From contig JASXTE010000012.1 in the NCBI GenBank assembly GCA_030280995.1, positions 6,953,001-7,017,000 on the forward strand: DNA of 64,000 bases. Direction: 5' to 3'. The notes below the pieces were generated by a model that saw only the letters and a list, made by a program, of their open reading frames with translations, made no database searches and was not told where the DNA came from. A program made the position numbers and the translations under genes. Of the stretch, positions 1,891 to 64,000 are shown piece by piece. Source of the stretch: Hemileia vastatrix (Eukaryota > Basidiomycota > Pucciniomycetes > Pucciniales > Zaghouaniaceae). The first letter of the stretch is position 1. The number at the start of each line of letters is the position of its first letter.

Positions 1891-2625
1891 TGATAGAAGT
1901 TTAAGGTTGATGAGTGGGAAGTTAGAATTTATCACCAAATGAGCAGGTGGGGTGTGTAGATAAATAAATATTTGATGTATCTTCTACCAAAATTAAGTAG
2001 AATAGAGTGAAGAGAGACTTAAGGATGGCATCTGAAATTGTATGTCATGTGACTTTCTTTTAAATTAATCATGGATGTGATCAGTTTGGGATCAGGAATA
2101 AGGAATTGAACTTGGGGTATAAGCGGTGTGATAATGCATTATTGTGTAATACGTATCCACTAGCACTGGGGCTAGTGGATAGAAATCTTCTGCAATTAAA
2201 AATTTTGGATCCCAGAAAAAATAGTTCCTGATCCCTAATTGCAGATCCCTGAAGATTAATACCCCCCATTAATTAGGGGGTATCAATGTTGACCGATCCG
2301 CAATTAAATTAATTGCGGAAAATAATCTGCATACCCCAATTATCTTCCGCAATTATTTTTGCTAATAATTGGGTTATTAGACACTTTACGTGTCAATGTT
2401 CACCTCTTATCCGACATTTTTTTACTCAATTTTCCATAACCACATCTTGGACAACTTTCTGGATATCCCAGCCTTCTACCTTGCTGCGCACTTCCATTCT
2501 CATCCCATCCTGTTCATTCTATCCGCTCAGAATTTCTCCCCATTTCATCTATTTGATTCTTCTCCTTTTCATCTCGCTATCTCATCTGCTTGTTTCTGCT
2601 CCTTTTCATCTTCATTTATAATAAC

Positions 2626-4023: not shown

Positions 4024-4424
4024 TTTCTTTTATTTCTTTCACACTTCATGTGTTCATATTTATTTGTACATAAATTTTACAATTATTTTCTGTATTTCTT
4101 GAAATATCGTATTTTAATGATAAATATTCTTTTTTTAAATAAAATTTTCAGTTCTCCTTTGAAAATTTGACAATCCCCCACCCCTGGATTTTTTTGAAGT
4201 AAGGGGTGGGTATCACAAAAATTCTTTCATGTCATGAATCTTGAAAGTTTTATATGAAAATTTGGCTTTACTACCCCCTGCATTTTACCGGTATCCTAAA
4301 AATTCTTACATGTCAAGAATTTCACAAGTCTTATAAAAAATTTTGGCACAACCCCCCATGGATTTTATTGAAGTAAGGGACGGGTATCACAAAAATATTT
4401 ACAAGTCAAAAAAATTCTATATCT
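4024..4424. other. Intergenic spacer with a repeated 'CCCCTGxATTTTATTGAAGTAAGG' type motif
   Basis: No gene is seen. The stretch contains three imperfect repeats of a C-run followed by a TTTTATTGAAGTAAGG-like motif and GGTATCAC. The same motif occurs in the spacers of elements A (39430-39570), B (47310-47450) and D (62330-62450), so it is a conserved part of this element family. It lies downstream of the Myb-like gene in C2 and between dioxygenase and transposase in A and B. Its role is unknown; 3' processing or spacing are possibilities. Confidence 0.5.
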
Positions 4425-4510
4425 CACCACGCAATATGGGGGGCGGACTTGCTAGCAAGTCCGCAACCTTGAACCCTAATTCATATCTTTTTGTGCCCAC
4501 ATTGAATTAG
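4425..4510 (+). mobile_element. CACTA-like element, left terminus (inserted in C2)
   Basis: The terminus starts CACCACGCAATATGGGG and contains a perfect 22-bp palindrome at 4443-4464, centred on GCTAGC. The same terminus occurs at 18369, 24125, 49039 (reverse), 53135 and 55199 (reverse). Internal sequence just after it (AACCTTGAACCC) matches 53165-53185. I could not find the matching right end before 6000, so this is either a truncated copy or a larger insertion whose right end has decayed. Confidence 0.6.
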
Positions 4511-5110
4511 TGATGAAACCACCAAGAAAAAATATTGACATTCTGGTGAACTCAATATGAATATAACTTGAACATTTAATGAAGCATAGGAAATAATACT
4601 TTGAACAAATCTTGAGATATAAAGAATGAGATTTTTTTATAGAAATTTTAATACAGTGCAGATCACACTCAAATTAATCTGAAAAATACATATTTAAAAC
4701 TATTTAAGCAGTTTCTTTGCAATTTTTTAAAAAAAGAACAGCAATGTATAGATGCGGCAAGATACCATGTGACATTATTATATAAGTTTCTTTGGCCAGA
4801 AATACATGGAGAAACTACAATTTGAAATATGTCAATTTGTTCATGAAGGCTGGAGAGAGGGGTGAGGAAGGATATATGGGGTAGCAAAAAGGTTGGGAAA
4901 GAGTTGGAAGGGAAGATTAAGGGTTCCGAGGCATTTTAAATGAAGAAAAGGGTCTGGGAGAGGTTGAGAGGGGTGAAATGGGGATCAAAAGAGGATGGCA
5001 TACAATGGGGCTGGGAGGATAGCGAAAGGCATGGGGAGAGAAGACAAGCATGTGTTGATAGAATTGAAAGGGATGGAGATTGGTGCAAACAGAGTGTGAA
5101 AATAGGAGGA

Positions 5111-5144
5111 TGAACTCTGTTCTTCGGGCGAAGAACAGAGTTCA
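5111..5144. repeat. Perfect 34-nt hairpin (16-bp arms, GG loop)
   Basis: Arms 5111-5126 and 5129-5144 are exact inverted repeats around a two-base loop. It sits in the non-coding centre of element C2. Function unknown; cruciform or small-RNA precursor are possibilities only. Confidence 0.8.
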
Positions 5145-5216
5145 CTTCCATAAAATATTAGCTGAAACATAGTTTTCAATTCTGTAAAAACAGTTGTAAG
5201 TAATAGAAAAAGTCAT

Positions 5217-5495
5217 GGCGCCTAAAGAGAGGGAAAGGGGGGGTTTGATGTGGGTAAAGAGAGGTGAAGGGGGGGGTTTGAGGCGCCAAAAGAGAGGTGA
5301 AGGGGGGGTTTGAGGGACATAAAGAGAGGGGAAGGGGGGAGTATTGAAGCACCTAAAAAGAGGGGAAAGGGGGTGATGAGGGACCTAAAGAGGGGGGAAA
5401 GGGGGGATTTGAGGCAGCTAAAAAGGGGGTAAAAAGGGGGTCAGAGACAGGTAAAGAGAGGGAAAAAGGGGGGCCTTGAGGATCATAAAGAGAGG
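5217..5495 (+). repeat. G-rich minisatellite in element C2
   Basis: About seven imperfect units of 35-45 bp share the pattern CTAAAGAGAGGGGAAAGGGGGG followed by TTTGAGG, with variation in each copy. The plus strand carries many runs of 4-8 G separated by short A-rich spacers, so G-quadruplex formation is plausible. It lies upstream of the minus-strand transposase terminator and downstream of the Myb-like gene. Reading frames through it are proline-rich but look like a by-product of the repeat. Confidence 0.8.
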
Positions 5496-5607
5496 TGAAG
5501 GAGAGAGAAAAAAACAAAAAAATAAAAAGATAAAAAAGAGAAAAAAGCAAAACAAAAATTAGTTTACCCTAGAACAAAAATAATAGAAGCACTTACAAAA
5601 AAAACAA

Positions 5608-5660
5608 AAAAAACCAAAAAAAAAGCAAAAAAAAAGCAAAAAAAAAGCAAAAAAAAAGCA

Positions 5661-5690
<30 letters not shown>
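5608..5690 (+). repeat. (A8GC)n tandem repeat
   Basis: About eight head-to-tail 10-bp units of A-run plus GC, grading into a pure A-run. It lies in the non-coding centre of C2 just beyond the minisatellite. Confidence 0.85.
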
Positions 5691-5691
<1 letters not shown>

Positions 5692-5749
5692 AATCATGAT
5701 TAGCAAATAAAAAACCATGAAAAAAGAAAAAAAATGACCTACCTGGTGA

Positions 5750-6040
5750 GTTGAGTTGAGAAAATAAATGCAACCAAAATATTTGAGGGATGTTTGAGGA
5801 GAATAGGAAAAGGATATGAGTGATGAATGAAAAAAAAAATCACTGACAAAATATGCGATATAAGAAAATATGCGATTTCATGTTGAGGAAGTGAAAGAAA
5901 ACCAATGAGCAATCCAAAAAAAAGATATTCACCGTAAATTCAAAAAAAAAAAATGAATATGCAACAAACCAAAATACAAAACCAAGTGATTAAAGTACAC
6001 AAAGAGGACATTTGGAAAGTATGAAAACATAAAAATTAAA
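5750..6040. other. Conserved non-coding block of the Harbinger element family
   Basis: This block (GGAGAATAGGAAAAGGATATGAG, AAATATGCGATTTCATG and neighbours) matches 41470-41690 in element A, 45150-45420 in B (reverse) and, more loosely, 60400-60690 in D. In A, B and D it lies upstream of the dioxygenase gene and contains a GTAAGT splice donor (for example CTCTCCAG/GTAAGT at 45430), so it may be a spliced 5' leader. In C2 a dioxygenase gene is not recognisable next to it. C2 and B carry a short duplication of AAATATGCGAT that A lacks. Confidence 0.5.
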
Positions 6041-6042
6041 AA

Positions 6043-7302
6043 TTAAAAGGGTGAAGAGAAATGTTGAAGAGTAATTGGCATTATAATGGGGCGTATGCCG
6101 GTTGATTGAATGATTTGTGAATCAAGGGAGGGGAGTGCCAGTGGTGGTTCAGGATCCTCTTCTTCATAAAGATCATTCCACTCATCCTTTAAATCAGCTA
6201 GAATATTGTGGAGTATTACGCAAGTCAAGATCCAATGATTTGCAGTTTTGATCTCCAATTTTTTTTGAAATTGGATTCTGAGCTCCCGAAGACTAGAAAA
6301 TCGTCCCTTTAAAATACCTATAGCATGTTCAATTCGTACTCTTGATTGTGCAAGGTGATAATTAAATTTAGTTTTGGGGTCATTTTCTGAAGTTGCACCA
6401 CGGAAAGCAGGTATAATGTACTTTCCACTTGCATATGCTGAGTCTGCAAGGAGGTACTGAGATTCGTCAAAGTATGATTCAGGGGATTGAGAAATCCTCA
6501 TTCTTTGGAAGACAGAAGAGTCATGACATGATCCAGGGCAGCCACTGTGAAAAGCAATAAATTTTTTATTGACATCGCATACAAGTTGAACGGCAATAGA
6601 ATATCTAGAAAGAAGATAAAAAGTTAGATTGTGAAAGATGAGAACTTGGAGAAGATTTTGAAGAAACCTTTTTTTGCGATCAAAATAATGGTTGCCATCA
6701 TGAGCAGGCTTTTGACTCAAAGGGATGGTTGTGCCATCAACAAAACCTATACAGCCAGGGAAACCTTCAGCTTGCATTACTTGAGAGGATTCAAGTCGCT
6801 GTTCTGGAGTTGGCCAAGCAAGAGTTTGAGACTTGAGGGAAAGGATAGCAATCATACAGCGCTTGGTGTATAATATCACGGTACCATATCCTATGTTAAA
6901 GAGATTATCCAAATGTCTTACGGCAGCACCATTTCCATTTGAGCCAAAGCGACATACAGCAACAGCAAGTTGGATGGCAGGATTACGCTGTTTGTTATGA
7001 GAATTGTTATGGAAGATAGGATGATCGGAGATGAGTTGATAAAGTTTGAAGAAAGAATCAGGAGAAGTTCTAAAAAGTTGTGTGAAGTTTAAATGAGGAA
7101 TGTTGAGAATGGAGGCCAGATCATATTGGGGATCATGATAAAGATTTGGCCCCCTGGTGATGATGTAACGCTTTTTGGAAAGAAAACACATATAAGCTAA
7201 AGCATCTTCCAAATCAGAGTCAGATTTATAGTAAAGAACTAAAAGAAAAGTGATAGCATTCATTGTTGAGTGAAGTAGCTTCCTAGTAGAGAGGTGTTTC
7301 AT
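6043..7302 (-). CDS. PIF/Harbinger DDE transposase (DDE_Tnp_4 type), apparently intact
   Basis: Catalyses cut-and-paste transposition of its own element and of related MITEs. I chose the ATG at 7302, since the open frame further upstream has no other ATG; this gives 419 residues, normal for the family. The catalytic triad is visible: Asp189 in GFVDGT, Asp287 in LLADSAYASG and Glu325 in RIEHAIGIL, each in its usual block. SGCPGSCHDSSVF and ILHNILADLKDEW are further family hallmarks. The N-terminus is His/Ser-rich, then a helical region (about residues 60-150) likely contacts DNA or the Myb-like partner. It converges on the Myb-like gene of the same element. No internal stop is seen, so this is the only transposase in the window that could work. 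C1, A, B and D hold broken copies. Confidence 0.88.
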   Translation of the reverse strand: MKHLSTRKLLHSTMNAITFLLVLYYKSDSDLEDALAYMCFLSKKRYIITRGPNLYHDPQYDLASILNIPHLNFTQLFRTSPDSFFKLYQLISDHPIFHNNSHNKQRNPAIQLAVAVCRFGSNGNGAAVRHLDNLFNIGYGTVILYTKRCMIAILSLKSQTLAWPTPEQRLESSQVMQAEGFPGCIGFVDGTTIPLSQKPAHDGNHYFDRKKRFLQNLLQVLIFHNLTFYLLSRYSIAVQLVCDVNKKFIAFHSGCPGSCHDSSVFQRMRISQSPESYFDESQYLLADSAYASGKYIIPAFRGATSENDPKTKFNYHLAQSRVRIEHAIGILKGRFSSLRELRIQFQKKLEIKTANHWILTCVILHNILADLKDEWNDLYEEEDPEPPLALPSLDSQIIQSTGIRPIIMPITLQHFSSPF

Positions 7303-7564
7303 TGTTGCCGGTGGATGGGTTAAGTGATGAGGGAAGTGGGAATTCACCGCCAAATGTGCAGTTGGGGTGTGTAGATAGAAAAAAAACTTAAGTGTTTGCC
7401 ACCAAAATTAAGTAGCATAGAGTGAGGAAATACTTAAGGATGGCATCAGCAATTATAAGTCATGTGACTTTCTTAAAAATCCATCATGGATGAGATGAGT
7501 TTGGGATCAGGAATTAGGAATGGAAATTGGGGTATAAGAGACGGGATAATGCATTATCATGGAT

Positions 7565-7600
7565 TTCTTATCCACTAGCCCTGGGGCTAGTGGATAAGAA
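7565..7600. promoter_or_regulatory. Subterminal palindrome of element C2
   Basis: Two 17-bp arms (7565-7581, 7584-7600) around TG, containing CCACTAGCCC and its complement. It lies about 80-115 bp from the right terminus. Diverged copies sit at the same distance in C1 (2153-2181) and D (59752-59788). Such conservation suggests a transposase or accessory-protein binding site, but this is inference. Confidence 0.6.
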
Positions 7601-7996
7601 TCTTCCGCAATTAATAATGTCTGATCCCGGGAAAAAAAATTCCTGATCCCTAATTGCGGATCCCTGAACATTGATACCCCCTATTAGGGATACGTTTAAA
7701 TATTGTTACTTATGTGTTAAAGATTTATTTCACCAGAAAATATAGGAAAACTTGCTTGAATGTTTTTAATGAATCATAACTATTTTCTTCTATTTTCAAA
7801 AAAAATATGTTTCTCTTCATATTTTTCAGGGCGGGTGTCAAGGGTTGGTACAGAGGTGATTGAAGGATAGGTAATATTTATAGGATGTAAATTTCTGATT
7901 TCACAATAGAAGCTACTAGATATATCTTATTTCAAAGAAATAAATAGTAATTAGAACTTATGAATAATATTTATAATGTAATAAAACTAATTAATA

Positions 7997-20300: not shown

Positions 20301-20301
20301 G

Positions 20302-21960: not shown

Positions 21961-21964
21961 AAGT

Positions 21965-38445: not shown

Positions 38446-38727
38446 AAAAGATATTAGGGGGTGTCAGTTCTGGCAAATCCGCACTTAAATAAGTGCGGAT
38501 TTCAAAAACACACTAGCCCCAATACTGGTGGATTTCAAAATGAAATAAGTCACTTATTTCACTCAAATCCGCACTTTCTAAACCAAAAGTGCTGATTTCA
38601 CCATCGAGTCCCATTTCACTGATTTGTCAGCATCATCCCATTCATACGCAGCACTCCGCAGCATAACACTTCATAACTCAAAACATCTTACATCACTTAC
38701 ATCTTCATATCATATCATATAAGAGTT

Positions 38728-39360
38728 ATGCCTTCCTCACTTTCAAATCGTGATAAATTACATAAAGCAATGACTTTCATGGCTCTTGAACTGCTCTTGG
38801 ACTCTGATTGCAATTCTGATTCTGATCTAGAAAAAGATTTTGTCTTTTTATCAAAAATGGCCATGAAACATTACCTTCTTCCCAGAAAGCCTCAAGTACT
38901 TCATACCCCCAAGTACACCATCCAAACACTTCTTAAACTATCTACACCCAGTTTTAGACAGCTGTTCAGGACTTCTCAGGAATGTTTCCTTAAATTTCTT
39001 AATCTTATTCAGGATCATTCCATATTTCACAATAATTCTCAAAAAGAACAACGACATCCTTCAATTCAATTGGCCATCACACTATGTCGTTTGGGTTCAA
39101 ATGGTAATGGAGCCACTTTGAAACATTTAGAAAATGTCTTTGATTTAAGGTATTGTTCAGTTAACACTTATACCAAACAATGTATCACTTCCATCAACTC
39201 CTTGTAATCTCAACTTCTCACCTGGCGAACAAAAGAAGAGCGACTTGAATCATCTCAGGTTATGCAAGCAGAGTGCTTCCCAGGATGTATTGGTTTTGTT
39301 GATGGTACTGCTATTCCTTTGAGCCAGAAACCTGCTCAAGGTTGAAACAATTACTTTCAC
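38728..39360 (+). pseudogene. Truncated Harbinger transposase (element A)
   Basis: ATG at 38728, MPSSLSNRDKLHKAMTF, then RQLFRTSQECFLKFLNLIQ and CRLGSNGNGA as in the C2 enzyme. A TAA follows INSL (39205), then the frame continues LLTWRTKEERLESSQVMQ and GFVDGTAIPLSQKPAQG, a TGA, and NNYF. Homology ends there: the part with the second Asp and the Glu is deleted and replaced by element spacer. The TAA is shared with element B, so it predates their duplication. Confidence 0.85.
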
Positions 39361-39633
39361 ATTCTCGTCAAAAATTTTCACCAAAATATTTTCAAGTCAA
39401 TAAAATTCCATATCTGTTTTAAAAAATTTGCAATACTCTCCCCTGCATTTTATTGAAGCAAGGGGTGGATATCACCAAAAAATTTTTAAGTCATCAATTT
39501 CACATGTCAGATTTGAAAATTTGGCAATACCCCCCCCCCTGCATTTTATTGAAGTAAGTGGTGGAAGTCATCTAAATTTAATATAATTACATAAATTATT
39601 AAATAAATATCTAATATATATCAATTTCCCTAG

Positions 39634-39792
39634 TTTAAAGTAATGACAATCCCTCAGCCAAAATGCAGATCAAATCTAGAAACAAAAGTTTGGGACTTTC
39701 CACAGGTATAGGCTAGAGGAACCCCATGAAACAAATAAATGTTATCATGATTACCATTTATACAACACAAGGTCGTGGGCCCATTACTTTAG
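39634..39792. repeat. Conserved inverted repeat downstream of the dioxygenase gene (element A)
   Basis: AAAGTAATGACAATCC on the left and GGGCCCATTACTTT on the right form imperfect arms about 150 bp apart, with ACAACACAAGGTCGTGG inside. Equivalents: 47082-47240 in B, 61889-62042 in D. It follows the stop of the dioxygenase gene in all three, so it may be part of the 3' UTR or an old MITE fixed in the family. Confidence 0.5.
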
Positions 39793-39862
39793 TTGAGGAA
39801 ATTGATACATAAAAAATATTTATTAAAAATTTACGAAAAATATAAATTTTTTGATGACAACT

Positions 39863-40489
39863 CTAATCCCCATACTTTTTGGATCTAAATAAAGTTTTTT
39901 TAAATCGATTAACTTTACCTTCTTTCATTACCTTATTGATTCTTTGAATCAACTTATGACTGATTTGAAATGAGCAACCAAAATGTGTTAAATCTTGACA
40001 GGATTCCAAACCAGGAGGAGCTTTGGTCGTTTGATGATTATCCTTAGAAGAATTCCAAATAGTTTCGATGATACCATTTCCCAAACCAAAATCAATGATG
40101 CACTGGTGGTCTGGAAAATATAAACCATGTCATTTGATTTTAGCTGGAGATGGTATTGGTTGGCCAGTAATTGGTTTGATATATGAGAATATACCAAAAG
40201 TAAGAAAATTGGTGTCCTTGGTATCGGTGTGAATTTTATTGTGAAATCCAGAATGAGTGATAATAACATTAGAAAATAAAAGATATTCATGGCTGATATC
40301 TTCCCATTTGGAGTCACACCAATTCGGTATTCCTACTTTGGTTGCAGGTTCAGGATTTTTTTCAAATGCTTTATTACAGTGCTTTTTGAGTCGAAGAGCA
40401 AGAAAAGAGTTAAAGGAAGGTAGAGTGTCCCATAAGCAAAAATCTTCATCTTTTTGAGCTTTAGTGATATTCTTGAGCAACGGATACAT
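39863..40489 (-). CDS. Tet/JBP-like 2OG-Fe(II) dioxygenase (element A), one internal TGA
   Basis: About 208 residues from ATG at 40489. LWDTLPSFNSFLALRLKKH starts a helical N-part. The iron site follows as FHNKIHTDTKD (HxD), then LTFGIFSYIKPITGQP, HGLYFPDHQ, IIDFGLGNGIIETIW, the distal His in NHQTT, and THFGCSFQIS. This order matches rust Tet-like oxygenases, relatives of TET/JBP, which oxidise methylated or other pyrimidines in DNA using 2-oxoglutarate and Fe(II). A TGA (40130-40132) between AKIK and HGLYF interrupts the frame; element D has GAT (Asp) there, and B shares the TGA. The upstream non-coding block has splice signals, so an N-terminal exon may exist. Possibly a recent pseudogene. 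Confidence 0.65.
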
Positions 40490-42130
40490 GCCTAGATAAT
40501 AATCATATAAGAGTTTCAGAATCCTTATCCTCTAAATATGCAATATAAAAATGTGAAATAAGACAAGTGAAATTTGGAAAAAAGGCTCAACTTCAAAGGT
40601 CAAAATCTCAGCAACCACTGAACCTAATTCAAACCTGTTTGTGGGAAATAAAAGATATTCTTTAGTAGAATCTTCAGTTAAAGGACATGTGATTTAAATA
40701 AACCTAACCCTAATTTGTTACATAAAAAAATGAAATAAAAATTTAAATTGGGAAAAAAAAGGCTCAACTTTAACAGTCAATATCTCAGCAACCACTGAAT
40801 CAAATTCAAATCTGTTTGTGGAAAATGAAAGGTAGCCTTCAGGAGAATCTTCAGTAAAAAGAACATTAGATTTGAATAAAACTAACCCTAATTCCGAGTC
40901 TGATTTTCAAAATTTTACAAAAACTTGAAAAGTGGTAATGAAGATGAGATCAAAAGAAGTTTTATAAGTTCACTGTTATCCAGATAAGAGTCATACATAT
41001 ATTTAAGTATGAACTTTTCATAAATGGAATGAGATATCATATAGGCATGAAAAAAAGGAGATGAAACTTACCTTGATTGAAAAGTAGGAAAAATAGAGTG
41101 AGAAAGATTGATGTTGGAATTGTGGGGAAATTGAATATGGAGTAAGTGAAATGCATAAAGAATGTGCAATGTATGTGTTTCAATGAAATGGAGCCAAAAA
41201 CAAGTGAAATAAGGGAAAGGGGGGATAATGACCATGCCAAGGAGGGATGGAGAGTAGGGTGATGGAGCTAAAAAAGAAAGTAAAGAGGGAGAGAAAAAAA
41301 AGGTTAATTATACCATTGAAATCCAAAATAACCACTTACAAAAAAAATTTAGATAAAAAAAATAAAATAAACAGAAAAAAACAAAAAAAATTATAATTAG
41401 TAATCAAAAAATCAAAAAAAAGAATAAAGTGACTTACCTGGAGAGATGAGATGACAAAATGAATGAAACCAAATTGTTTGAGGGATGTTGGAGGAGAATA
41501 GGAAAAGGATATGAGGGATGAATGAAAAAAAAATCACTGACAAAATATGCGATTTCATGTTGAGCTGGTGAAAGAAAACCAATGAGCCATCCAAAAAAAA
41601 ATTTCCCCGTAAATTCCAAAAAAAATGAATATGCAACAAACCAAAATACCAACCCAAGTGAATGAAGTACACAAAGAGGAAATTTGGAGAGTACAAAATG
41701 GTATGTGAAAGAAAGGGATGATGTGGCCAACATGTGGTTTTGAAAAAAAAATCACGAAAAAAGTGCTGATTTGAGGTCAGAACTGACACCCATAGAAAAA
41801 AGATTAAGAAGTAGAAGAAATAAGTAAAAAAGAATTTAAACATGCCTGGTCAAAATATTGAAAATGTCAGGAAGGGGTGTGTGCCGAGGATTGATGGGTA
41901 GGTAGCGAGGAAGGTCAGTGTGTCACATGTGACAGGGATGGGGTAAGAAAGGAAGGGATGTTTTGTGGCCAAAATGTGGTTGTGAAAAAAACGGGAAAAA
42001 AGTGCTGATTTGAGGTCATAACTGACACCCTTTTTTGAAATAAGTGACTTTTTTGCAAAATTTAAGTGCTGATTTGGTTTGAAATCCGCACTTAAGTTAA
42101 GTGCGGATTTTCCAGAACTGACACCCCCTA

Positions 42131-44405
42131 ATATAAATGTCTATTCTTTTTCATTCAATAAATAAAAAAGATATATATGTAAGAGTATTTTTTACACAAT
42201 ATTAGCCCTTTATCTTTAAAATATGAAAAAATAAAGACATAAAATGAAATTTTATTAGAATTAATAATATAAAAATAGTTTTTTTTATTTAAATTTAATT
42301 CTGTGCTGAGTCCATTCCCTTATCCATACTATAGAACATATTTTTCATGTTTTATTATTATTTTATTTTTTAGCACACTAATTCTTATCTCCTCATTCCT
42401 ACCTTCTGCCTTACATAAAAATTTATCTTCAATATTGTTCTCCTCTTGAAAATTTCTTTTCTTTTCTCTAAAAAAAATTATTTCCATGCTTTTAAGCCCT
42501 TTCTTCTTCCATAAAGCCCTCTCTGACCCTTTAAAAGCATCCCTACCTCTTTCCACTTGTTTCCATCCCTATTTATTCCCTCCCCAGACCTTCATACCAG
42601 TTATAAATCATAGAAATTAAGTGAATTTTTTTGAGAAAGAAATGAGAAGGGATGGATGAGATAGAAGTTGTAGCAAAAGGTAAATATTGATAGTAAACAG
42701 TAGAAATATGGGTTTAAAAAAAGGGGTATAGAGGGAAGTAAAATTGGTTTAAAGATGCTGTAAATATAATTGAGGATATAAAAAGGAATCAGAAGTTGAT
42801 TTATTTTTGATTTAAGGGTAATGAAAGGAGTGAGGAGCAATTTTATGGTACAAGAAAAAGGTTAAGATTTATAGGATAGGGAGTAAAAGAAAAAGGAGGA
42901 GAGAAAAGGGAAATGTGAAATGAGGGTAGAAAAACATTTGTTGAGAAAATATGATCACATATAAAAGTGCTAGTAAGACTAGAAAGTTAGAAAAAGTGGT
43001 TGAGAAAAGGTAAATTAGAGTTTTTAAAAATATGAGGGTGGATGCTAATGTATGGCCAAACATCAGAATACACATTAATCTTATATTTCTCTCCACACAA
43101 AAAGCTTTATTTCAATCATATGAATACTTAATTATGGCATTAAATTCTTTATCCTGTTATACTAAAGTGTAGACTTCCATTTGAAATTTAAATGAAATGA
43201 AATTCTAGTTTAAGGCTTTGTATAAATCTTTGGTACTTCAAGATACAAAAGGTTTTGCTGCTCATATCAATAATAAAATTGCAAAAAATGAAAATTAAGG
43301 AAGACATTAAATTAATCAATACATATAAATACATTATTTCTTTCCAATAATTTAACTTTATGAGGATGATAATTATACATATCTTTGAAAAATTAGTCAA
43401 ATGGTATTATCTATAAAATAGATTTAGAAAAACAAACCTATAATTAAACCCAAAAAAATCAAATATATTAAGTAAAAATTAGAAGAAGGCCTCTACATTA
43501 GATAAAAGCTATAAATAAATATTATTCAGTGTAATTATACATAAGTTTTGGGAGGAAATTATTCAATTTGAATCTCCTATAGTGTGTTGATTTTTAGTTA
43601 CAAATGTTGCTCCTAATTTCCATACAATTCCACTTGAAATTTCATACAAGACCTTTTTACATGTCTTAAATTAGAGCTTCCACATTAAATTTTTATATAA
43701 CCATCTACAAAAAATTATTTTGATTTATTTTAAAAAATTCAAATACTTTTTTTAAATATATTGTTTTAATATTCAACCTTCTATTGCCTAAGTAATTTTT
43801 TTTTCAAAAAAAAATTAGCTAATAGAATTATATTTTTATTTATTTTTTAATATCTTAGAAAAATGTATATCTCAGTCTTGATGTATCTCCGATTGAACAC
43901 CCAATTCAAATCTCATCCAGAGAATTCTTCAAATTAACTTCAACTTAAAACATATTTAATGTCTTTGAATTTTTAAAATCTGTTTTTACAATGAAAAAAC
44001 TGGTATATGGTTTTAATGATAATCTTTAAATCTCATTACATAGGTATCTTGGAATAAAGAGACCTATTAAGCTCATTTGAGTTCCATTTTTTTAAATGAG
44101 AGCTATAAGAGCCATATTCATGAACAAGTATTTCTTTTACCCAAATATAAATTGATAAAAAGCTTATCAGGATTAAAAATCTGTCCATAATATATATATT
44201 AATGTATTTTTATATCTATACTCTTTTGACTACATTGAAAAAAAAAGCTCATGAAAAAGGTTGATTATTTTGATAATTTTTCTTGATGAGTTATAAACTT
44301 TCTATAATTTTAATTAGGCCTTTTAAAAAAATATTTACTTTACTTCATTTCATTTTATTTTATTTGATTTTTCTTTATTATATTCTATCATACTATATAT
44401 TACTG
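42131..44405. other. AT-rich spacer between elements A and B, no gene seen
   Basis: Open frames here are low-complexity and lack codon bias. No TIR, LTR or known motif was noticed. Confidence 0.5.
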
Positions 44406-44703
44406 TATTATATTATATTATATTATATTATATTATATTATATTATATTATATTATATTATATTATATTATATTATATTATATTATATTATATTATATTA
44501 TATTATATTATATTATATTATATTATATTATATTATATTATATTATATTATATTATATTATATTATATTATATTATATTATATTATATTATATTATATTA
44601 TATTATATTATATTATATTATATTATATTATATTATATTATATTATATTATATTACATTATATTATATTATATTATATTATATTATATTATATTATATTA
44701 TAT
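44406..44703. repeat. (TATTA)n microsatellite, about 60 units
   Basis: About 300 bp of perfect 5-bp units with one interruption (TATTACATTA near 44651). It ends two or three bases before the TA that flanks element B. Confidence 0.97.
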
Positions 44704-46381
44704 AATAGGGGGTGTCAGTTCTGGCAAATCCGCACTTAACTTAAGTGCGGATTTCAAACCAAATCAGCACTTACAAATCAGCACTTAAATTTTGCAAAAA
44801 AGTCACTTATTTCAAAAAAGGGTGTCAGTTATGACCTCAAATCAGCACTTTTTTCCTGTTTTTTTTCACAACCACATTTTGGCCACAAAACATCCCTTCC
44901 TTTCTTACCCCATCCCTGTCACATGTGACACACTGACCTTCCTCGCTACCTACCCATCAATCCTCGGCACACACCCCTTCCTGACATTTTCAATATTTTG
45001 ACCAGGCATGTTTACATTCTTTTTTACTTATTTCTTCTACTTCTTAATCTTTTTTCTATGGGTGTCAGTTCTGACCTCAAATCAGCACTTTTTTTGTGAT
45101 ATTTTTTTTTCAAAACCACATATTGGCCACATCATCCCTTTCTTTCCTATACCATTTTGTACTCTCCAAATGTCCTTTTTGTGTACTTCATTCACTTGGG
45201 TTGATATTTTGGTTTGTTGCATATTCATTTTTTTTGGAATTTACGGTGAAATTTTTTTTTTGGATGGCTCATTGGTTTTCTTTCACCAGCTCAACATGAA
45301 ATCGCATATTTTCTGAAATCGCATATTTTGTCAGTGATTTTTTTTTCATTCATCCCTCATATCCTTTTCCTATTCTCCTCCAACATCCCTCAAACAATTT
45401 GGTTTCATTCATTTTGTCATCTCATCTCTCCAGGTAAGTCACTTTATTCTTTTTTTTGATTTTTTGATTACTAATTATAATTTTTTTTGTTTTTTTCTGT
45501 TTATTTTATTTTTTTTATCTAAATTTTTTTTGTAAGTGGTTATTTTGGATTTCAATGGTATAATTAACCTTTTTTTTCTCTCCCTCTTTACTTTCTTTTT
45601 TAGCTCCATCACCCTACTCTCCATCCCTCCTTGGCATGGTCATTATCCCCCCTTTCCCTTATTTCACTTGTTTTTGGCTCCATTTCATTGAAACACATAC
45701 ATTGCACATTCTTTATGCATTTCACTTACTCCATATTCAATTTCCCCACAATTCCAACATCAATCTTTCTCACTCTATTTTTCCTACTTTTCAATCAAGG
45801 TAAGTTTCATCTCCTTTTTTTCATGCCTATATGATATCTCATTCCATTTATGAAAAGTTCATACTTAAATATATGTATGACTCTTATCTGGATAACAGTG
45901 AACTTATAAAACTTCTTTTGATCTCATCTTCATTACCACTTTTCAAGTTTTTGTAAAATTTTGAAAATCAGACTCGGAATTAGGGTTAGTTTTATTCAAA
46001 TCTAATGTTCTTTTTACTGAAGATTCTCCTGAAGGCTACCTTTCATTTTCCACAAACAGATTTGAATTTGATTCAGTGGTTGCTGAGATATTGACTGTTA
46101 AAGTTGAGCCTTTTTTTTCCCAATTTAAATTTTTATTTCATTTTTTTATGTAACAAATTAGGGTTAGGTTTATTTAAATCACATGTCCTTTAACTGAAGA
46201 TTCTACTAAAGAATATCTTTTATTTCCCACAAACAGGTTTGAATTAGGTTCAGTGGTTGCTGAGATTTTGACCTTTGAAGTTGAGCCTTTTTTCCAAATT
46301 TCACTTGTCTTATTTCACATTTTTATATTGCATATTTAGAGGATAAGGATTCTGAAACTCTTATATGATTATTATCTAGGC

Positions 46382-47008
46382 ATGTATCCGTTGCTCAAGA
46401 ATATAACTAAAGCTCAAAAAGATGAAGATTTTTGCTTATGGGACACTCTACCTTCCTTTAACTCTTTTCTTGCTCTTCGACTCAAAAAGCACTGTAATAA
46501 AGCATTTGAAAAAAATCCTGAACCTGCAACCAAAGTAGGAATACCGAATTGGTGTGACTCCAAATGGGAAGATATCAGCCATGAATATCTTTTATTTTCT
46601 AATGTTATTATCACTCATTCTGGATTTCACAATAAAATTCACACCGATACCAAGGACACCAATTTTCTTACTTTTGGTATATTCTCATATATCAAACCAA
46701 TTACTGGCCAACCAATACCATCTCCAGCTAAAATCAAATGACATGGTTTATATTTTCCAGACCACCAGTGCATCATTGATTTTGGTTTGGGAAATGGTAT
46801 CATCGAAACTATTTGGAATTCTTCTAAGGATAATCATCAAACGACCAAAGCTCCTCCTGGTTTGGAATCCTGTCAAGATTTATTACATTTTGGTTGCTCA
46901 TTTCAAATCAGTCATAAGTTGATTCAAAGAATCAATAAGGTAATGAAAGAAGGTAAAGTTAATCGATTTAAAAAAACTTTATTTAGATCCAAAAAGTATG
47001 GGGATTAG
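46382..47008 (+). CDS. Tet/JBP-like 2OG-Fe(II) dioxygenase (element B), one internal TGA
   Basis: Same protein as in element A; the first 119 residues are identical and the C-terminal part differs at one residue (CQDLLHFG against CQDLTHFG). HTD and HQTT iron ligands are present. TGA at 46739-46741 as in A. Upstream, GTAAGT donors at 45435 and 45799 and a CTAG just before the ATG suggest spliced 5' exons. The lack of further stops, while the transposase next to it is truncated, is notable but may only reflect recent copying. Confidence 0.65.
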
Positions 47009-47081
47009 AGTTGTCATCGAAAATTTTATATTTTTTCGTAAATTTTTAATAAATATTTTTTATGTATCAATTTCCTCAACT

Positions 47082-47240
47082 AAAGTAATGGGCCAACGAC
47101 CTTGTGTTGTATAAAAGGTAATCATGATAACATTTATTTGTTTCTTGGGGTTCCTCTAGCCTATACCTGTGGAAAGTCCCAAAATTTTGTTTCTAGACTT
47201 GGTCTGCATTTTGGCTTGAGGGATTGTCATTACTTTAAAC
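47082..47240. repeat. Conserved inverted repeat downstream of the dioxygenase gene (element B)
   Basis: TAAAGTAATGGGCC and GTCATTACTTTA arms; between them CGACCTTGTGTTGTATAAA and GGTAATCATGATAAC, also conserved in D (61900-61945). Confidence 0.5.
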
Positions 47241-47514
47241 TAGGGAAAGTTATATATATTAGATATTTATTTAATAATTGATGTAATTATATTAAATTTA
47301 GATGACTTCAACCACTTACTTCAATAAAATTCAGGGGGGGGGGTATTGCCAAATTTTCAAATCTGACATGTGAAATTGATGACTTAGAAAAATTTTGGTG
47401 ATATCCACCCTTGCTTCAATAAAATGCAGGGGAGAGTATTGCCAATTTTTTAAAACAGACATAGAATTTTTTTGACTTGTAAATATTTTGGTGAAAATTT
47501 TTGACGAGAATGTG

Positions 47515-48143
47515 AAAGTAATTGTTTCCACCTTGAGCAGGTTTCTGGCTCAAAGGAATAGCAGTACCATCAACAAAACCAATACATCCTGGGAAGCCCT
47601 CTGCTTGCATAACCTGAGATGATTCAAGTCGCTCTTATTTGTTGGCCAGGTGAGAAGTTGAGATTACAAGGAGTTGATGGCAGTGATACATTGTTTGGTA
47701 TAAGTGTTAACTGAACCATACCCTAAATCAAAGACATTTTCTAAACGTTTCAAAGCAGCTCCATTACCATTTGAACCCAAATGACATTGTGTGATGGCCA
47801 ATTGAATTGAAGGATGTTGTTGTTCTTTTTGAGAATTATTTTGAAATATGGGATGATCCTGAATAAGCTCAAGCAATTTAAGGAAAATTTCCTGAGAAGT
47901 CCTGAACAGCTGTCTAAAACTGGGTGTAGATAGTTTAAGAAGTGTTTGGATGGTGTACCTGGGGGTATGAAGTACTTGAGGCTTTCTGGGAAGAAGGTAA
48001 TGTTTCATGGCCATTTTTGATAAAAAGACAAAATCTTTTTCTAGATCAGAATCAGAATCGCAATCAGAGTCCAAGAGCAGTTCAAGAGCCATGAAAGTCA
48101 TTGCTTTATGTAATTTATCACGATTTGAAAGTGAGGAAGGCAT
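47515..48143 (-). pseudogene. Truncated Harbinger transposase (element B)
   Basis: ATG at 48143; 159 residues to the same TAA as in A. A one-base deletion near 47637 follows, then GFPGCIGFVDGTAIPL and PAQGGNNYF. The catalytic remainder is missing, as in A. It cannot catalyse transposition. Confidence 0.85.
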
Positions 48144-48689
48144 AACTCTTATATGATATGATATGAAGATGTAAGTGATGTAAGATTTTTTGAGTTATGA
48201 AGTGTTATGCTGCGGAGTGCTGCGTATGAATGGGATGATGCTGACAAATCAGTGAAATGGGACTTGATGGTGAAATCAGCACTTTTGGTTTAGAAAGTGC
48301 GGATTTGAGTGAAATAAGTGACTTATTTCATTTTGAAATCCACCAGTATTGGGGCTAGTGTGTTTTGGAAATCCGAACTTATTTAAGTGCGGATTTGGTC
48401 AAATTTAAGTGCGTATTTGCCAGAACTAACACCCCCTATTAGAGCTTAATTTTATCACCAAAATATAATTCCCTTCATTTTTATAAGTGTTTTAGATTTT
48501 TTAGATATTTTAAATTTTGATAATGGTTAATAAGATTGTGTTGAATCATTAGAATTGAAGTTTTTTTTTAAAGTCTTACTTAGGAAGTTTAATGGAATAT
48601 ATTAATTTTCAAAATATTTTTCTTGAATGATTTACTATAGTGCCTTATAAATTCATCATATATTTATAATTACGTAAAATACTTTGAAC

Positions 48690-59547: not shown

Positions 59548-60046
59548 TTTGCTTAAATAATTTTGATTCAGGATATGAAGCTCCTTAAAGCATTATAAGT
59601 CAGGCAGTTGATGAGGTACTTCACTTTGTCTTATCAGGAATCTTTGTTTTAAAATCTTATCTATAATAGGGGGGTATCAATTTTAAGGGATCAAAAATTA
59701 GGGATCAGGAAAAGTTTTTCCATAGATCCAAAATTATTATCTGTGGAAGATTCCTATCCACTATCCCTTGGGCTAGTGGATAAGGAATGTACAATAATAC
59801 ATTCTCCTGCCTCTTACACCCCAATTTCAATTCCTAATTACCGATTCCAATCTCATCACCTCTATGATTGATTTTTCAGAAATTCACATGAAATATAATT
59901 TTGGATGCCATCCTTATGTCTCTCTTCACTCTAGGCCACTTTATTTTGGTGGCAAAATCTTAAAATTTTTTTCTATCTACATACCACCCCTGCTCATATG
60001 GATGCAAATTTCTACTTCCCTCATCACCTAAACCTTCCACTAATAA

Positions 60047-60345
60047 CAATGAAGAACCTCTCTGCTAGGAATCAAATCTAGTAAACTATGAATGCTATTT
60101 AGTGCCTATATGCACAAAGCATTTCATGATTTCCATCCTTTCCCTCAAGTCAAAAACACTTTCTTGGCCAAATCCGCAACAGAAAATTGGATCCTCTCAA
60201 CATAAAATATTTTCATAATGACTTTTATTATACTCCATAAAATTCTAGCTGATTTAAAGGATGAGTTGTATGATCTTTATGAAGAAGATAATCTTGAACC
60301 TGCACCAGCTCTCTCCCCCCCTTTATTCACCAAACTTACTTTCCA
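60047..60345 (+). pseudogene. Transposase remnant (element D), internally deleted
   Basis: The start MKNLSARN at about 60050 corresponds to the C2 transposase start. Scraps of the middle follow (TCAAAAACACTTTCTTGGCC matches the SQTLAWP region). Then comes the C-terminal ILHKILADLKDELYDLYEED at 60233-60292. The catalytic blocks are gone. Confidence 0.8.
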
Positions 60346-61419
60346 CTGTGATACACTCTGTCAATCATTCCAATCAAACTCCAACATTTCTCAACACAAC
60401 CTTTTTATTTTTTTTCATACTCTCTTTCATGTTTTATTCACTTTGGATGGTTATTTATTTGGTGCATATTTAATTTTATTTTTACTTTTCTGTAAAATTT
60501 CCTTTGTTTTTCAGGCCCCTTTGTTTTCTTTCATAAACTCAACATGAAATTGAATTTTTTCTTCCATTGCATAATTTTTCTTTCTTTCTTTCTTTCATCC
60601 CTCATATCCTGTTCCTCTTCTACTCTTGCATCCCTAAATTATTTTGAAGTCAAATTTTTTTTCCTCACTCATCTCTCCAGGTTAGTCATTTTTTAATTTT
60701 TTTCTATCTTTTTCTTTCTGATTATTTATTTTTTTCTTTTTTTTTGTATCCCATGTTTTTTGTAAGTGGTTTTTCTTTTGGTTTTCATGGTTAAATTAAT
60801 TTTTTTTTCCCTTTCTCTTTCTTTTTTTATCTCAATCATTCTACTTTATATCCCTCCTTGGACTAGTTATTACCCCCTCTTTCCCCATTTTGCTTTTTTT
60901 TCTTTCCATGTCATTGATAAAAATTTATTGTGATTTATTTATGTATTTCACTTTCTCCATATTCAATTTCCCCCAAACTTTCAACTTTTCTCTCTCTCAA
61001 GCTATTTTTTCTACCTTTCCATTAAGGTAAGTGTCAACTCCTATTTATCTTTCTTGCATATATGATATATATGTCTTTTTATATATAATTCACACCCAAA
61101 TAGTTGTATGTCTCTTATCTAAATAAAAATGGACTTAAATAAATCCTCTTTTTTTGTTTTCATTATCACTTTTCAAGTTTTTGCGAGATTTTGAAAAAAA
61201 ATTTGGAATTAGGGTTAGGTTTATTTAAATATCATTTTCTTATAGCTAAAGATTCTCCTGAAGCTTATATTAAAGTTCCCAAAAACAGCTTTGAATTTGA
61301 TTAAGTGGTTTCTGAGATATTGTCCTTAAAAGTTGAGCCTTTTTTTCCAAATTTCACTTTTAATTATTTCATAATTCCTTCATCATGCATTTATCCTTCA
61401 AGAGTCCCCCTTTTTACAA

Positions 61420-61818
61420 GTAAAATTTTTCAAGATTTAATAACAAGATACATACTAACAAAATGATGCAAATTATATTACTTTTGGAATATTCTCTTGT
61501 ATCAATCCGATTTCTGGAAAACCTATACAATCACCTACTTAAATCAAAGATCATGGCTTATATCTTATGAGTCATAAGTCTATAATCAATTTTGAATTGG
61601 GAAATGGTATCATGAAAACTCTTTGTAAAACTTCTCATTACAATAAACAAAAAAAAGTTTTTTCATCTTTGAAATCTTGTCAAGACTTCACTCATTTTAG
61701 GTGTCCTTTTCATTTAAGTCAAAATTTAATTCAACAAATCAACAAGGTAAAAAAAGAAGGTGAAATTAATAAATTTAAAAAAACTCAAGGTAGATTAAAA
61801 AATTATGTGGATTTTTAG
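61420..61818 (+). pseudogene. Dioxygenase remnant (element D)
   Basis: Follows the gene of A and B: NKIHTN (HxD changed to HTN), a frameshift, then YITFGIFSCINPISGKP, a TAA, and KDHGLYL, INFELGNGIMKTL, where the distal His region reads YNKQKK. DFTHFRCPFHLSQNLIQQIN and a Lys-rich tail follow. Iron ligands are lost, so it is dead. The GAT codon (61545 region) shows what the TGA of A and B replaced. Confidence 0.75.
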
Positions 61819-61888
61819 TTTTTCCAAATATTTATTATTCTTTTATAAATTTTCAATAAATAATTCTAATATTTAAATTTACTAAATT

Positions 61889-62042
61889 AAAGTAATGGAC
61901 CAACAACCTTGTGTTGTATAAATGGTAATCATGATAACATTAATTTCTTTTATTAGGCTCCTCTATCTTAAACTTTTTGAAAGTCCCAAGCTTCTGTTTC
62001 TGGATTAACTGAATTTTGGTATGTGTAATTATCATTACTTCA
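61889..62042. repeat. Conserved inverted repeat downstream of the dioxygenase gene (element D)
   Basis: AAAGTAATGGACC and ATCATTACTT arms with CAACCTTGTGTTGTATAAA between, as in A and B. Confidence 0.5.
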
Positions 62043-62067
62043 AAACCAGTAAAATTGACATATCTTA

Positions 62068-62280
62068 CACCAGAAAAAAACATGGACACTTGATAGCAGG
62101 TGCCAATACCTATCTTTGATTCAACTCAATTTTAGCTCAGCTGTAATTCTTCTAGAAAGACTGCGCACTGAACAATGAGCCCACTAGCTTGCAAAATATC
62201 AAATCAAATTTACTCTTAAATCAAAACTGAATATAGGTATAGGCACCTGCTAGCATGTGCCACTTTTATTTTTTGTGGTG
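62068..62280. mobile_element. GCTAGC-type CACTA-like MITE (213 bp) inside element D
   Basis: CACCAGAAAAAAACATGG at the left, TTATTTTTTGTGGTG at the right; TIR about 55 bp, containing GGCACCTGCTAGCATGTGCC at 62242-62261. Flanks TTA and TAA. A decayed relative lies at 50360-50562. Confidence 0.7.
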
Positions 62281-62825
62281 TAAGTTATTTATTTATTCAT
62301 TTATGTAATTATATTGAATTTTGGTAACTACCACCCTTTTCTTCATCAAAACTTAGTGGAAGTTATTGCTGAATTATTTAATTGAAAATTTTTTGTTGAA
62401 ACCTACCTATTATTTCAATAAAATTCAAGGGTAAAATTGCCAAATTTTCAAAACAGATATTAAATTTTCTTGAGTTAAATCAATTTAGAAATGCAAATTT
62501 ATTGACTTGAGATGTAATTTTGTAAATTTTGTTATGAAAACACAAAGAAGTAAAAAAAAAGTGTGTTAAATTTTCCATTGGGACCATTTAAAAATGAATT
62601 TGGTTCATTTCTTGTTAAGTTGTTCAATTAATAATGGATAGAGTAATGAAATACAAGAAGTTATGAAATACTTTCATGTTCAAAAAATAATAAAAGAAAA
62701 CAAAAAACTATCAATCAATCAAAAATTTTCATAAATCATTTAATTTCCTCAATAGATTTATTAGCTTTAACACATTATATCAGGAAAAAAATTTTTGGAA
62801 CCATCTTCAAGTTAATTCTCAAGTT

Positions 62826-63800
62826 TCATCTGATCCAATATGAAATTGTACTCAAGAGTTTTCTTCTCTCTCTTTTATATTTTAATACTGAGAGATAGCT
62901 CAAATTTTTTCTCCTCCATGTCTTTTTCACTATCATCCCTCTCTGAAGAGAGCTCATACTTCCTCTCCTCCAAGTCTTTTTCCCTATTATCCCTCTGTAA
63001 ATAGAGGTCATATTGTTGCTTTTATAAGTTAAGAGTCTCTTGCGAAAATTCAACTTTACCTATTGTTTTAAGAAATATTAAAAAAAAAGAAAACAAAAGT
63101 AGACTGAATTATTAAGAGGTATCCTATCACTTTCCAGAATCATGTTTCTCTAAAAATTATTTGAAAAAAGAGATGGGGGTTTGAGAAGTACTATCTATTT
63201 CTTGTTTTCTTTGACTACTAAAATTTAGAGTAGATGAAGGCCTTTTATTTTTTTTGGAGGAATTTGGCATATTGTTTTCATCATCATTGTTTTTGCTAGC
63301 TTCAAAATTTCTTAATTGTGGCTGCTGGGTTTTCTCATCAGCCTTTTTAGAAATAATAAAAAGGGAAGTAAATAAAAATGAAGGAAAGAAACTAGATACA
63401 AGAAAAAAACTCACTGGAGTTAGATTTAGTTGGTTTATATCACCCTAAAGATCCATAAAAAAGATATCTTGATTGGTCAAATCAAAAAGCGGGTAGGCTT
63501 TAGTGGAGGAAAATGATTTTAAAATATTTCTCTCAATATCATTTTTGGAGACAGTGTCCTCTACATTCAAAAAACTTTCTGCATAAACATCATCTCACTC
63601 TTTAAATATAGAGTCCATCTCTTTATAGTAAAGACATAAAGAATCGAGTTTATTATCTATAGATTTAATGCCCTTACTGATATCAATGCAAGTAATACCA
63701 AAAACAGTGGAAGATGAAATAGTCTTAGCCTTATTGAATTTTGCTCAAAAGTTTTTGAAGAAGTCAGGTATATTTTTTTTCAAAAGATAAATAAAAGGGG
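62826..63800 (-). pseudogene. Myb-like/coiled-coil accessory gene remnant (element D)
   Basis: Same three-exon plan as 2626-4023, reversed. Exon 1 part 63800-63425 (FGITCIDISKGIKSIDNKLD, IFKE, with stops). Exon 2 is about 63347-63140 (KADEKTQQPQLRNFEASKN, then STLNFSSQRKQE). Exon 3 is 63045-62826, with two degenerate coiled-coil repeats (DLEERKYELSS type). The exon 2 donor reads GAAAGT instead of GTAAGT. Its N-terminal part is lost near 63800. Confidence 0.7.
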
Positions 63801-64000
63801 GGAAAATCTCTGACTTTGATTTTTAGTTCAATTTTTGGTTGCAGGGTGGAATTCTGTGTCTGATTTGTGGAGTGACCCTGTTTGACCCCACCTTATTCTT
63901 TTTCTTTTCTAAATTTTTTATATCCATGGCTCATGTCCTCTTATCTATGGATTCATACAAAATTTTTATTAGCACCTCCTCTTCCCTTCTCTTAAGAGAA

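What the first reader, a model, noticed from the sequence alone, without database searches (positions are those of the whole stretch)
39863..47008. Tet/JBP-like DNA dioxygenase genes carried by Harbinger-type transposons
Four elements (C1 7-495, A 39863-40489, B 46382-47008, D 61420-61818) each hold a gene or relic with an HxD motif, a G-[IV]-W/F core and a distal HQTT histidine, lying between Harbinger TIRs and next to a Harbinger transposase. Fungal TET/JBP genes are known to be expanded and linked to KDZ (Kyakuja-Dileera-Zisupton) transposons; linkage to PIF/Harbinger elements is not something I know to be described. A transposon that brings its own 5-methylcytosine oxidase could escape host methylation silencing.
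Basis: partly seen in the sequence, partly recalled or inferred. Interest (0 to 1): 0.88.

Follow-up and report, generated by a model that had tools for sequence, protein, structure and literature searches.

The report
Rust-fungus transposons carrying Tet-like oxygenase genes
In what appears to be a rust fungus, jumping genes of the Harbinger type carry a gene like the animal Tet enzymes that remove DNA methylation marks; this link was published in 2025, and the copies in this stretch are broken passengers.

Summary
C1 and the A/B genes match Pfam 2OG-FeII_Oxy_6 (Tet-like). A and B are two insertions of one 3.7 kb element with 16-bp TIRs and TA flanks. D is a relic without an intact iron-binding motif; all four window genes are broken.
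Genome-wide (747.6 Mb), a DNA search with part of B scored 40 of 8,281 first-look candidates. Of the 30 copies read (B included), 27 show both TIRs, all 27 with TA flanks. 28 of 30 share one internal stop, the transposase is truncated and substitutions look near-neutral: a non-autonomous burst.
Other Tet-like copies include open frames (88 of 150 scored hits lack stops); 30 loci read keep the H-D-H triad in 27-30, with dN/dS about 0.2 among stop-free ones. Flanks point to longer elements with a transposase and a convergent, possibly Myb/SANT-like protein; TIRs were not seen at both ends there.
The novelty claim fails: Kojima (2025, PMC12730594) described TET+ Harbinger 'PHISTA' transposons in rusts. 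Possibly new: the Myb/SANT-like protein (weak match), the truncated burst family, the AWTAWT target. Escape from silencing remains inferred.

The parts
38457..42128 (+). element A, 3672 bp, one copy of the A/B family; TA on both sides
   Evidence: TIR matches, TA flanks, 97% to B
38457..38472 (+). left TIR of A
42113..42128 (-). right TIR of A
38677..39411 (+). truncated Harbinger transposase of A (N-terminal part only)
   Evidence: tblastn with the 6043-7407 transposase, aa 39-259, 52%
39863..40489 (-). Tet-like 2OG-Fe(II) oxygenase gene of A, one internal TGA
   Evidence: PF20515 on both pieces
44708..48436 (+). element B, 3729 bp, second insertion of the same family, opposite orientation to A; TA on both sides
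44708..44723 (+). left TIR of B
48421..48436 (-). right TIR of B (one mismatch)
46382..47008 (+). Tet-like oxygenase gene of B, same internal TGA
   Evidence: PF20515 E 4.5e-27 with X at the stop; pieces apart
47461..48194 (-). truncated Harbinger transposase of B
7..495 (+). C1 Tet-like oxygenase, 3' part; an in-frame TAG lies just before it, inside the domain
   Evidence: PF20515 E 8e-16, E 5.7e-19 when extended upstream with X at the stop
704..1992 (-). C1 Harbinger transposase, broken frame
   Evidence: tblastn 63-74% to 6043-7407
2252..2266 (-). degenerate right TIR of C1
   Evidence: 2 mismatches to the C2 TIR
2276..7681 (.). element C2, 5406 bp, TIR-bounded, TA on both sides; transposase and Myb-like gene, no Tet-like gene found
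   Evidence: 33-nt inverted ends, 91%, TA included; flanks; no Tet-like trace
2557..3342 (+). Myb/SANT-like third protein, first frame
   Evidence: PF13837 E 9e-4, 20 bits, below the 27-bit cut-off, domain alone
3553..4023 (+). probable second exon of the third protein, repeated charged heptads
   Evidence: follows the Myb-like frame here, in D and in locus E51; exon status inferred
5661..6021 (-). remnant of the stretch upstream of the Tet-like gene
   Evidence: 86% to B 45160-45516
6043..7407 (-). C2 Harbinger transposase frame (DDE_Tnp_4), probable in-frame intron (inferred)
   Evidence: PF13359 E 3e-26
59670..64000 (+). element D, relic, runs on past the window
   Evidence: left TIR 59670-59684; Myb-like part continues to L002:5486
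59944..60313 (+). D transposase relic
61465..61812 (+). D Tet-like relic, no intact iron-binding motif
   Evidence: 56% to B; codons
62721..63066 (-). D relic of the third protein's second frame
63349..63792 (-). D relic of the Myb-like protein
   Evidence: 54% to 2557-3342

Best explanation
The window holds remnants of one Harbinger-type DNA transposon lineage of a rust fungus (PHISTA-like). Fuller elements carry a DDE transposase, a Tet-like 2OG-Fe(II) oxygenase and a convergent, possibly Myb/SANT-like protein between GGGGGTRTCA-type TIRs, and insert at the TA of AWTAWT sites. Shown: for the A/B family both TIRs, TA flanks and the target motif; gene content; in genomic relatives a conserved H-D-H triad and long-run purifying selection. 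Inferred: the full element as one unit (put together from D, E35, E51 and C2), that the Myb-like protein helps the transposase bind the ends, and that the oxygenase oxidises 5-methylcytosine on element DNA and so lowers silencing or C-to-T mutation. A and B belong to a derived subfamily: a Tet-like part joined to a truncated transposase, mobilised in trans (inferred) and recently amplified with one internal stop in most copies read, so that here the oxygenase gene is a passenger.
For: Pfam matches. Both TIRs in 27 of 30 copies read, B included, 27 of 27 with TA. AWTAWT in 29 of 29 sites (those 27 plus A and C2); AATAAT or ATTATT in 25 of 29 against 3.2% of TA sites in the window. PF20515 search of the own genome: 10,849 first-look candidates, 150 scored, 150 over the cut-off; 0 of 14 control genomes ring. 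By my count of that table 88 of 150 have no stop in the match, and 35 of these run from profile position 6-8 to 210-211. In the 30 loci fetched from it: H87 30, D89 28, H152 27; median dN/dS 0.22 over 50 non-independent pairs of 13 stop-free loci. Third-protein frame within 1.5 kb in 14 of 30, convergent in 14 of 14. E51 joins a Myb part 91-95% like C2 to a Tet-like part 94% like B beside a C2-type TIR. E35: TIR, transposase, Tet-like gene in a row, a 14-residue match to the third protein at its edge. Burst: truncated transposase, shared TGA in 28 of 30, mean pairwise identity 98.6% in 27 elements, N:S 112:51 against 144.5:58.4 expected.
Against: No element with all genes intact and both TIRs was seen. 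E51 has retroelement-like frames where the transposase should be, and its Tet-like match counts one TAA upstream of the 218-aa frame; E35 has five stops in the Tet-like gene. A transposase match lies within the flanks in 1 of 30 loci (flanks may be too short). The third protein's Myb match is below Pfam's cut-off, its model is of low confidence (pLDDT 48.7) and the fold search gave nothing under E 0.001. Closest pairs of stop-free genes have dN/dS of 0.34-1.01. In A/B-type genes a His (28 of 30) stands where C1 has an Arg that could hold 2-oxoglutarate. No significant match to a solved structure by sequence. Activity, expression and methylation are untested.
Confidence: 0.8

Rival explanations
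1. The Tet-like genes are host genes that lie by chance next to Harbinger debris; the TIRs do not move them.
For: C1 and D show only one clear TIR each; the window is dense in repeats; both TIRs were not seen around an open-frame copy.
Against: 27 of 30 copies of the A/B element read have both TIRs with TA at both ends, at different sites with one target motif; the similarity of A and B stops at the TIRs.
Confidence: 0.04
2. The internal TGA of the A/B family is read through or spliced out, and the A/B gene is still functional.
For: No indel in the 627-bp frame in 30 of 30 copies (L029 aligned from base 9); 0 unique indel events in 27 elements against 4 in the 735-bp transposase remnant.
Against: N:S among copies is close to the neutral expectation and further stops occur; 30 of 30 other genomic relatives have an amino acid at that place; removing an intron there would delete conserved core (inference). 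The indel contrast is weak and the copies read are the best-scoring ones.
Confidence: 0.06
3. The oxygenase has another job, such as making a hypermodified base or acting on 6mA, and does not relieve silencing.
For: The Arg of C1 is replaced by a His in 28 of 30 A/B-type relatives; Kojima writes that another activity cannot be excluded.
Against: Membership of the Tet-like family; CpG scarcity in the window (o/e 0.23) fits methylation with mutation but proves nothing about this enzyme.
Confidence: 0.2

Closest known systems
TET+ Harbinger / PHISTA transposons of Pucciniales (Kojima 2025, Biology 14:1741, PMC12730594)
   Same: Rust host clade by the transposase tree, PIF/Harbinger DDE transposase, Tet-like gene between TIRs, TA target-site duplication, a third protein
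   Different: The third protein here has a weak Myb/SANT-like match, which Kojima says none of his have; a truncated Tet-carrying burst family and the AWTAWT target are not in the parts that I read (1-5 of 7, legends)
KDZ transposons with TET/JBP genes (Iyer et al. 2014, recalled, not held; described in PMC12730594)
   Same: Transposon-borne Tet-like gene
   Different: 7-8 bp duplications according to PMC12730594; TA here
PIF/Harbinger two-protein elements of the Nuwa lineage (as described in PMC12730594)
   Same: DDE transposase plus, possibly, a Myb/SANT-type protein
   Different: 3-bp duplication reported for Nuwa, TA here; Tet-like gene added

Membership tests
PHISTA (TET+ Harbinger) | TA target-site duplication | tested here: met
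   27 of 27 copies with both ends recognised, of 30 read; A and C2 too
PHISTA (TET+ Harbinger) | PIF/Harbinger DDE transposase of the rust lineage | tested here: met
   PF13359 E 3e-26; 11-row clade 100/98 with six Puccinia and two unnamed sequences
PHISTA (TET+ Harbinger) | Tet-like gene inside the TIRs | tested here: met
   A/B family
PHISTA (TET+ Harbinger) | third protein without a Myb/SANT domain | tested here: inconclusive
   PF13837 E 2e-4 to 8e-3, 17 to 22 bits, cut-off 27
PHISTA (TET+ Harbinger) | place in Kojima's transposase tree | not testable with these tools
Tet-like 2OG-Fe(II) oxygenases (PF20515) | profile match over the curated cut-off | tested here: met
   59.1 (C1) and 95.9 bits (B, X at the stop) against 27; D not met
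Tet-like 2OG-Fe(II) oxygenases (PF20515) | H-D-H iron-binding triad | tested here: met
   C1, B (A differs from B at codons 8 and 168 only); 30, 28 and 27 of 30 genomic relatives; not met in D
Tet-like 2OG-Fe(II) oxygenases (PF20515) | double-stranded beta helix in a model | tested here: inconclusive
   C1 model pLDDT 35.3
5-methylcytosine oxidase | activity on 5mC DNA | not testable with these tools
   needs bench work
KDZ transposons | 7-8 bp target-site duplication | tested here: not met
   2-bp match in 27 of 27, none at 6-8 bp

The most novel reading that the evidence does not exclude
The elements carry a self-contained anti-silencing module: a Myb/SANT-like protein that binds the repeated TIR motifs and brings the Tet-like enzyme (or the transposase) to them, so that protection works in trans. 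That would explain how the truncated A/B subfamily, with a broken oxygenase gene and part of a transposase, could multiply at the expense of intact relatives in the same genome.
Probability: 0.15. Interest if true: 0.65.

Novelty: new member of a known kind. Interest (0 to 1): 0.4.

Why it matters
It extends a recently published link between Tet-like enzymes and DNA transposons to a genome where the Tet-like family looks very large (10,849 first-look candidates, 150 scored). The A/B burst (broken gene, mobile element) beside open relatives is a natural comparison of cis and trans action: if the enzyme protected only its own copy, broken copies should not have spread so well. A Myb/SANT-like partner, if confirmed, would also bear on how PHISTA elements relate to other PIF/Harbinger lineages.

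Tried and rejected
Protein searches with the A/B gene and with a three-row alignment found nothing at E 0.001; that search needs exact shared words, so it is no evidence of absence. Sequence comparison with solved structures gave nothing significant. AlphaFold models without alignments were of low confidence (pLDDT 48.7 and 35.3) and the fold search of the Myb-like model gave no match under E 0.001. Rfam: no match at the gathering scores. NCBIfam gave only sub-cut-off IS-type matches to the transposase. PF12851 in the own genome: nothing, and nothing in the controls either.

Considered and rejected: A and B as arms of one large inverted-repeat element or of a segmental duplication (each has its own TIR pair, TA flanks and unrelated flanks). 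A 3-bp duplication (0 of 27 copies match at 3 bp). The 5-bp matches in 11 of 27 follow, I infer, from the AWTAWT target and not from a longer duplication.

Not completed: the DNA search of the genome with the C2 transposase, protein searches with C1, transposase and Myb-like proteins, and a TIR pattern search did not complete, so the number of intact transposase copies is unknown. Confidence in the best explanation was lowered from 0.85 to 0.8 on re-reading, because both TIRs were not seen around an open-frame copy and E51 has a stop upstream of its open frame.
Full report
What was claimed.

The genes. Frames at the given coordinates are real. Pfam finds 2OG-FeII_Oxy_6 (PF20515, Tet-like) in C1 (59.1 bits) and in B with X at an internal stop (95.9 bits), cut-off 27. 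The two pieces on either side of that stop match on their own in both copies (56.7 and 34.0 bits in B, 56.7 and 34.1 in A). The A/B frame covers profile positions 59-211 only. D has no match, stops around the HxD site and no distal His; it is a relic 56% identical to B. C1 also has a stop inside the domain: with X there and the upstream residues added the score rises to 69.4 bits. So none of the four window genes is intact.

The elements in the window. A (38457-42128) and B (44708-48436) are copies of one family in opposite orientation, 97% identical, 2.6 kb apart. Each has GGGGGTGTCAGTTCTG ends (B's right end with one change) flanked by TA, and their flanks are unrelated by eye. Both contain only the first part of a Harbinger transposase; between A and B that remnant shows 18 nonsynonymous and 1 synonymous difference, p 0.09, as expected of a dead gene. 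C2 (2276-7681) is a third element with 33-nt inverted ends, 91% complementary, TA included, and TA flanks. It holds a Harbinger transposase frame (PF13359, E 3e-26), a Myb/SANT-like frame and a following frame of repeated charged heptads. No Tet-like trace was found between them (best E 0.058), although a stretch like that upstream of the gene in B (86%) and a repeat-rich stretch like that downstream of it are there. D shows a TIR, transposase relic, Tet-like relic and convergent third-protein relics, running past the window end.

The genome. The window lies in a 747.6 Mb assembly of 791 contigs. The C2 transposase's best database matches are 51-52% identical Puccinia coronata and P. striiformis sequences, and the C1, A and C2 rows fall in an 11-row clade (100/98) with six Puccinia sequences and two from unnamed sources. 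For that tree I used 68 of the 120 listed hits (197 found) plus three window rows. A rust host is thus inferred.

The A/B family. A DNA search with 2,460 bases of B gave 8,281 first-look candidates, of which 40 were scored; these cover 2,112-2,460 bases of the query at 96-98% identity (B itself 100%). Element A is not among the 40, so the list is a part. I read the 30 that became loci, B included. Both TIRs were recognised in 27; all 27 have TA on both sides, none matches at 3 or 4 bp, 11 match at 5 bp. Adding A and C2, 29 of 29 sites read AWTAWT, and 25 of 29 are AATAAT or its complement ATTATT, against 3.2% of the 5,575 TA sites of the window. The 627-bp Tet-like frame has no indel in 30 of 30 (L029 aligned from base 9). 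The internal TGA is present in 28 of 30 (27 seen directly; one search counts 2 copies without it). One copy, L009, is open over this frame. Substitutions among copies are near neutral (nonsynonymous 112 against 144.5 expected, synonymous 51 against 58.4, new stops 11 against 15.0). Indels are rarer in the Tet-like frame (0 unique events in 27 elements) than in the transposase remnant (4 in 735 bp), a weak hint against pure neutrality. The loci are the best-scoring copies, not a random sample.

Relatives elsewhere. The PF20515 search of the own genome gave 10,849 first-look candidates; 150 were scored and all 150 exceed the cut-off; 0 of 14 control genomes ring. By my count of that table, 88 of 150 have no stop in the matched stretch, and 35 of these run from profile position 6-8 to 210-211; many others begin near position 49 and may lack their first part. 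The 30 loci fetched (the top 30) all match the B protein, at 50-91% identity. Of these, H87 is kept in 30, D89 in 28, H152 in 27. A His is conserved (28 of 30) in the place where C1 has an Arg 13 residues after the distal His; such an Arg often holds 2-oxoglutarate in this superfamily (recalled). Thirteen loci are stop-free in the stretch aligned to B (other stretches than in the table). Of their 78 pairs, 60 have pS under 0.7; for the 50 of these with dS over 0.1 median dN/dS is 0.22, range 0.05-0.72, pairs not independent. Among the 12 closest pairs listed, (dS 0.06 to 0.10) dN/dS runs from 0.34 to 1.01. In the window, B against D gives dS 0.66 and dN 0.27 (Fisher p 0.001). So the gene was under purifying selection in the long run.

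Full gene order. In 14 of 30 loci the third-protein frame matches within the 1.5 kb flanks, and in 14 of 14 it faces the Tet-like gene from its 3' side; a transposase match is within the flanks in 1 of 30, which says little because the spacer may be longer than the flank. Locus E51 (L063+L051+L064) has a TIR of the C2 kind, the Myb-like frame (91% identical to the window's), its second frame, and a 218-aa stop-free frame with most of the Tet-like domain (107.5 bits, positions 49-211), 89% identical to B; the longer profile match of this locus counts one TAA upstream of that frame. On its other side lie retroelement-like frames (by eye) and no transposase match. E51 ties C2 (Myb part) and A/B (Tet-like part) to one lineage. 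Locus E35 (L035+L065) has a TIR, a transposase, a Tet-like gene on the same strand (five stops), and at its edge a 14-residue convergent match to the third protein. I infer the ancestral order: TIR, transposase, Tet-like gene, convergent third protein, TIR, and A/B as a rearranged, truncated derivative. No single uninterrupted example was seen.

The third protein. Its domain matches PF13837 (Myb/SANT-like) at E 9e-4 in the window (20.0 bits) and 2e-4 in E51 (22.1 bits), below the 27-bit cut-off. The structure model is too weak to decide. I call it probable, not shown.

Comparison with print. Kojima 2025 (PMC12730594; I read parts 1-5 of 7 and the figure legends) reports fifteen TET+ Harbinger families with TA duplications in six rust species, names the lineage PHISTA, and proposes escape from methylation silencing. 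He states that none of the third proteins of TET+ Harbinger families has a Myb/SANT domain. Paper searches; only this paper holds all of TET, Harbinger, Pucciniales and transposon. PMC12210899 (passages only) reports that PIF-harbinger is found only in Pucciniales among the Pucciniomycotina studied, and DNMT1 and DNMT5 in all 12 genomes. I made no search aimed at a truncated Tet-carrying Harbinger burst or at the AWTAWT target; they are not in the parts of Kojima's paper that I read, and its supplement was not available.

How it works. Shown: structure and target of the A/B family, conservation of the triad, selection. Inferred: trans mobilisation of A/B (truncated transposase, shared stop, recent spread) and oxidation of 5mC. 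CpG is scarce in the window (observed/expected 0.23), lower in the relics C1 and D (0.07, 0.09) than in A, B and C2 (0.28-0.39), and lowest in the stretch between A and B (0.03); two retroelement stretches without a Tet-like gene have 0.38 and 0.21, so age may explain it and the oxygenase need not.

Noticed in passing
window 35748-35945, 52328-52526, 7992-8186: Short (about 195-199 bp) elements, 83-92% alike, two with GGGGGTATCAAAGTT at both ends and one at one end, i.e. MITEs with ends like the C2 TIR; one is flanked AATA..TAAT.
   Followed up: partly
window 5198-5546; E35 (L035+L065): A G-rich tandem repeat of about 33 bp units beside the transposase in C2; a similar G-rich stretch lies between transposase and Tet-like gene in E35.
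   Followed up: no
window 44403-44705: A long run of a 5-bp unit (ATATT) directly at the left end of element B.
   Followed up: no
window 44708-45073 and the mirror part of A: The TIR motif GGGTGTCAGTT recurs inside each element at about 110 and 350 bp from the end, and a palindromic stretch follows the outer copy: possible repeated binding sites.
   Followed up: no
window 19783-22712 and 30235-31818, minus strand: LTR-retroelement coding remains: aspartyl protease at 20875-21993, reverse transcriptase and RNase H at 30235-31818; the other frames were judged by eye.
   Followed up: no
A/B-type Tet-like genes, B residue 169: A conserved His (28 of 30 loci) replaces the Arg seen in C1 behind the distal iron ligand.
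   Followed up: partly
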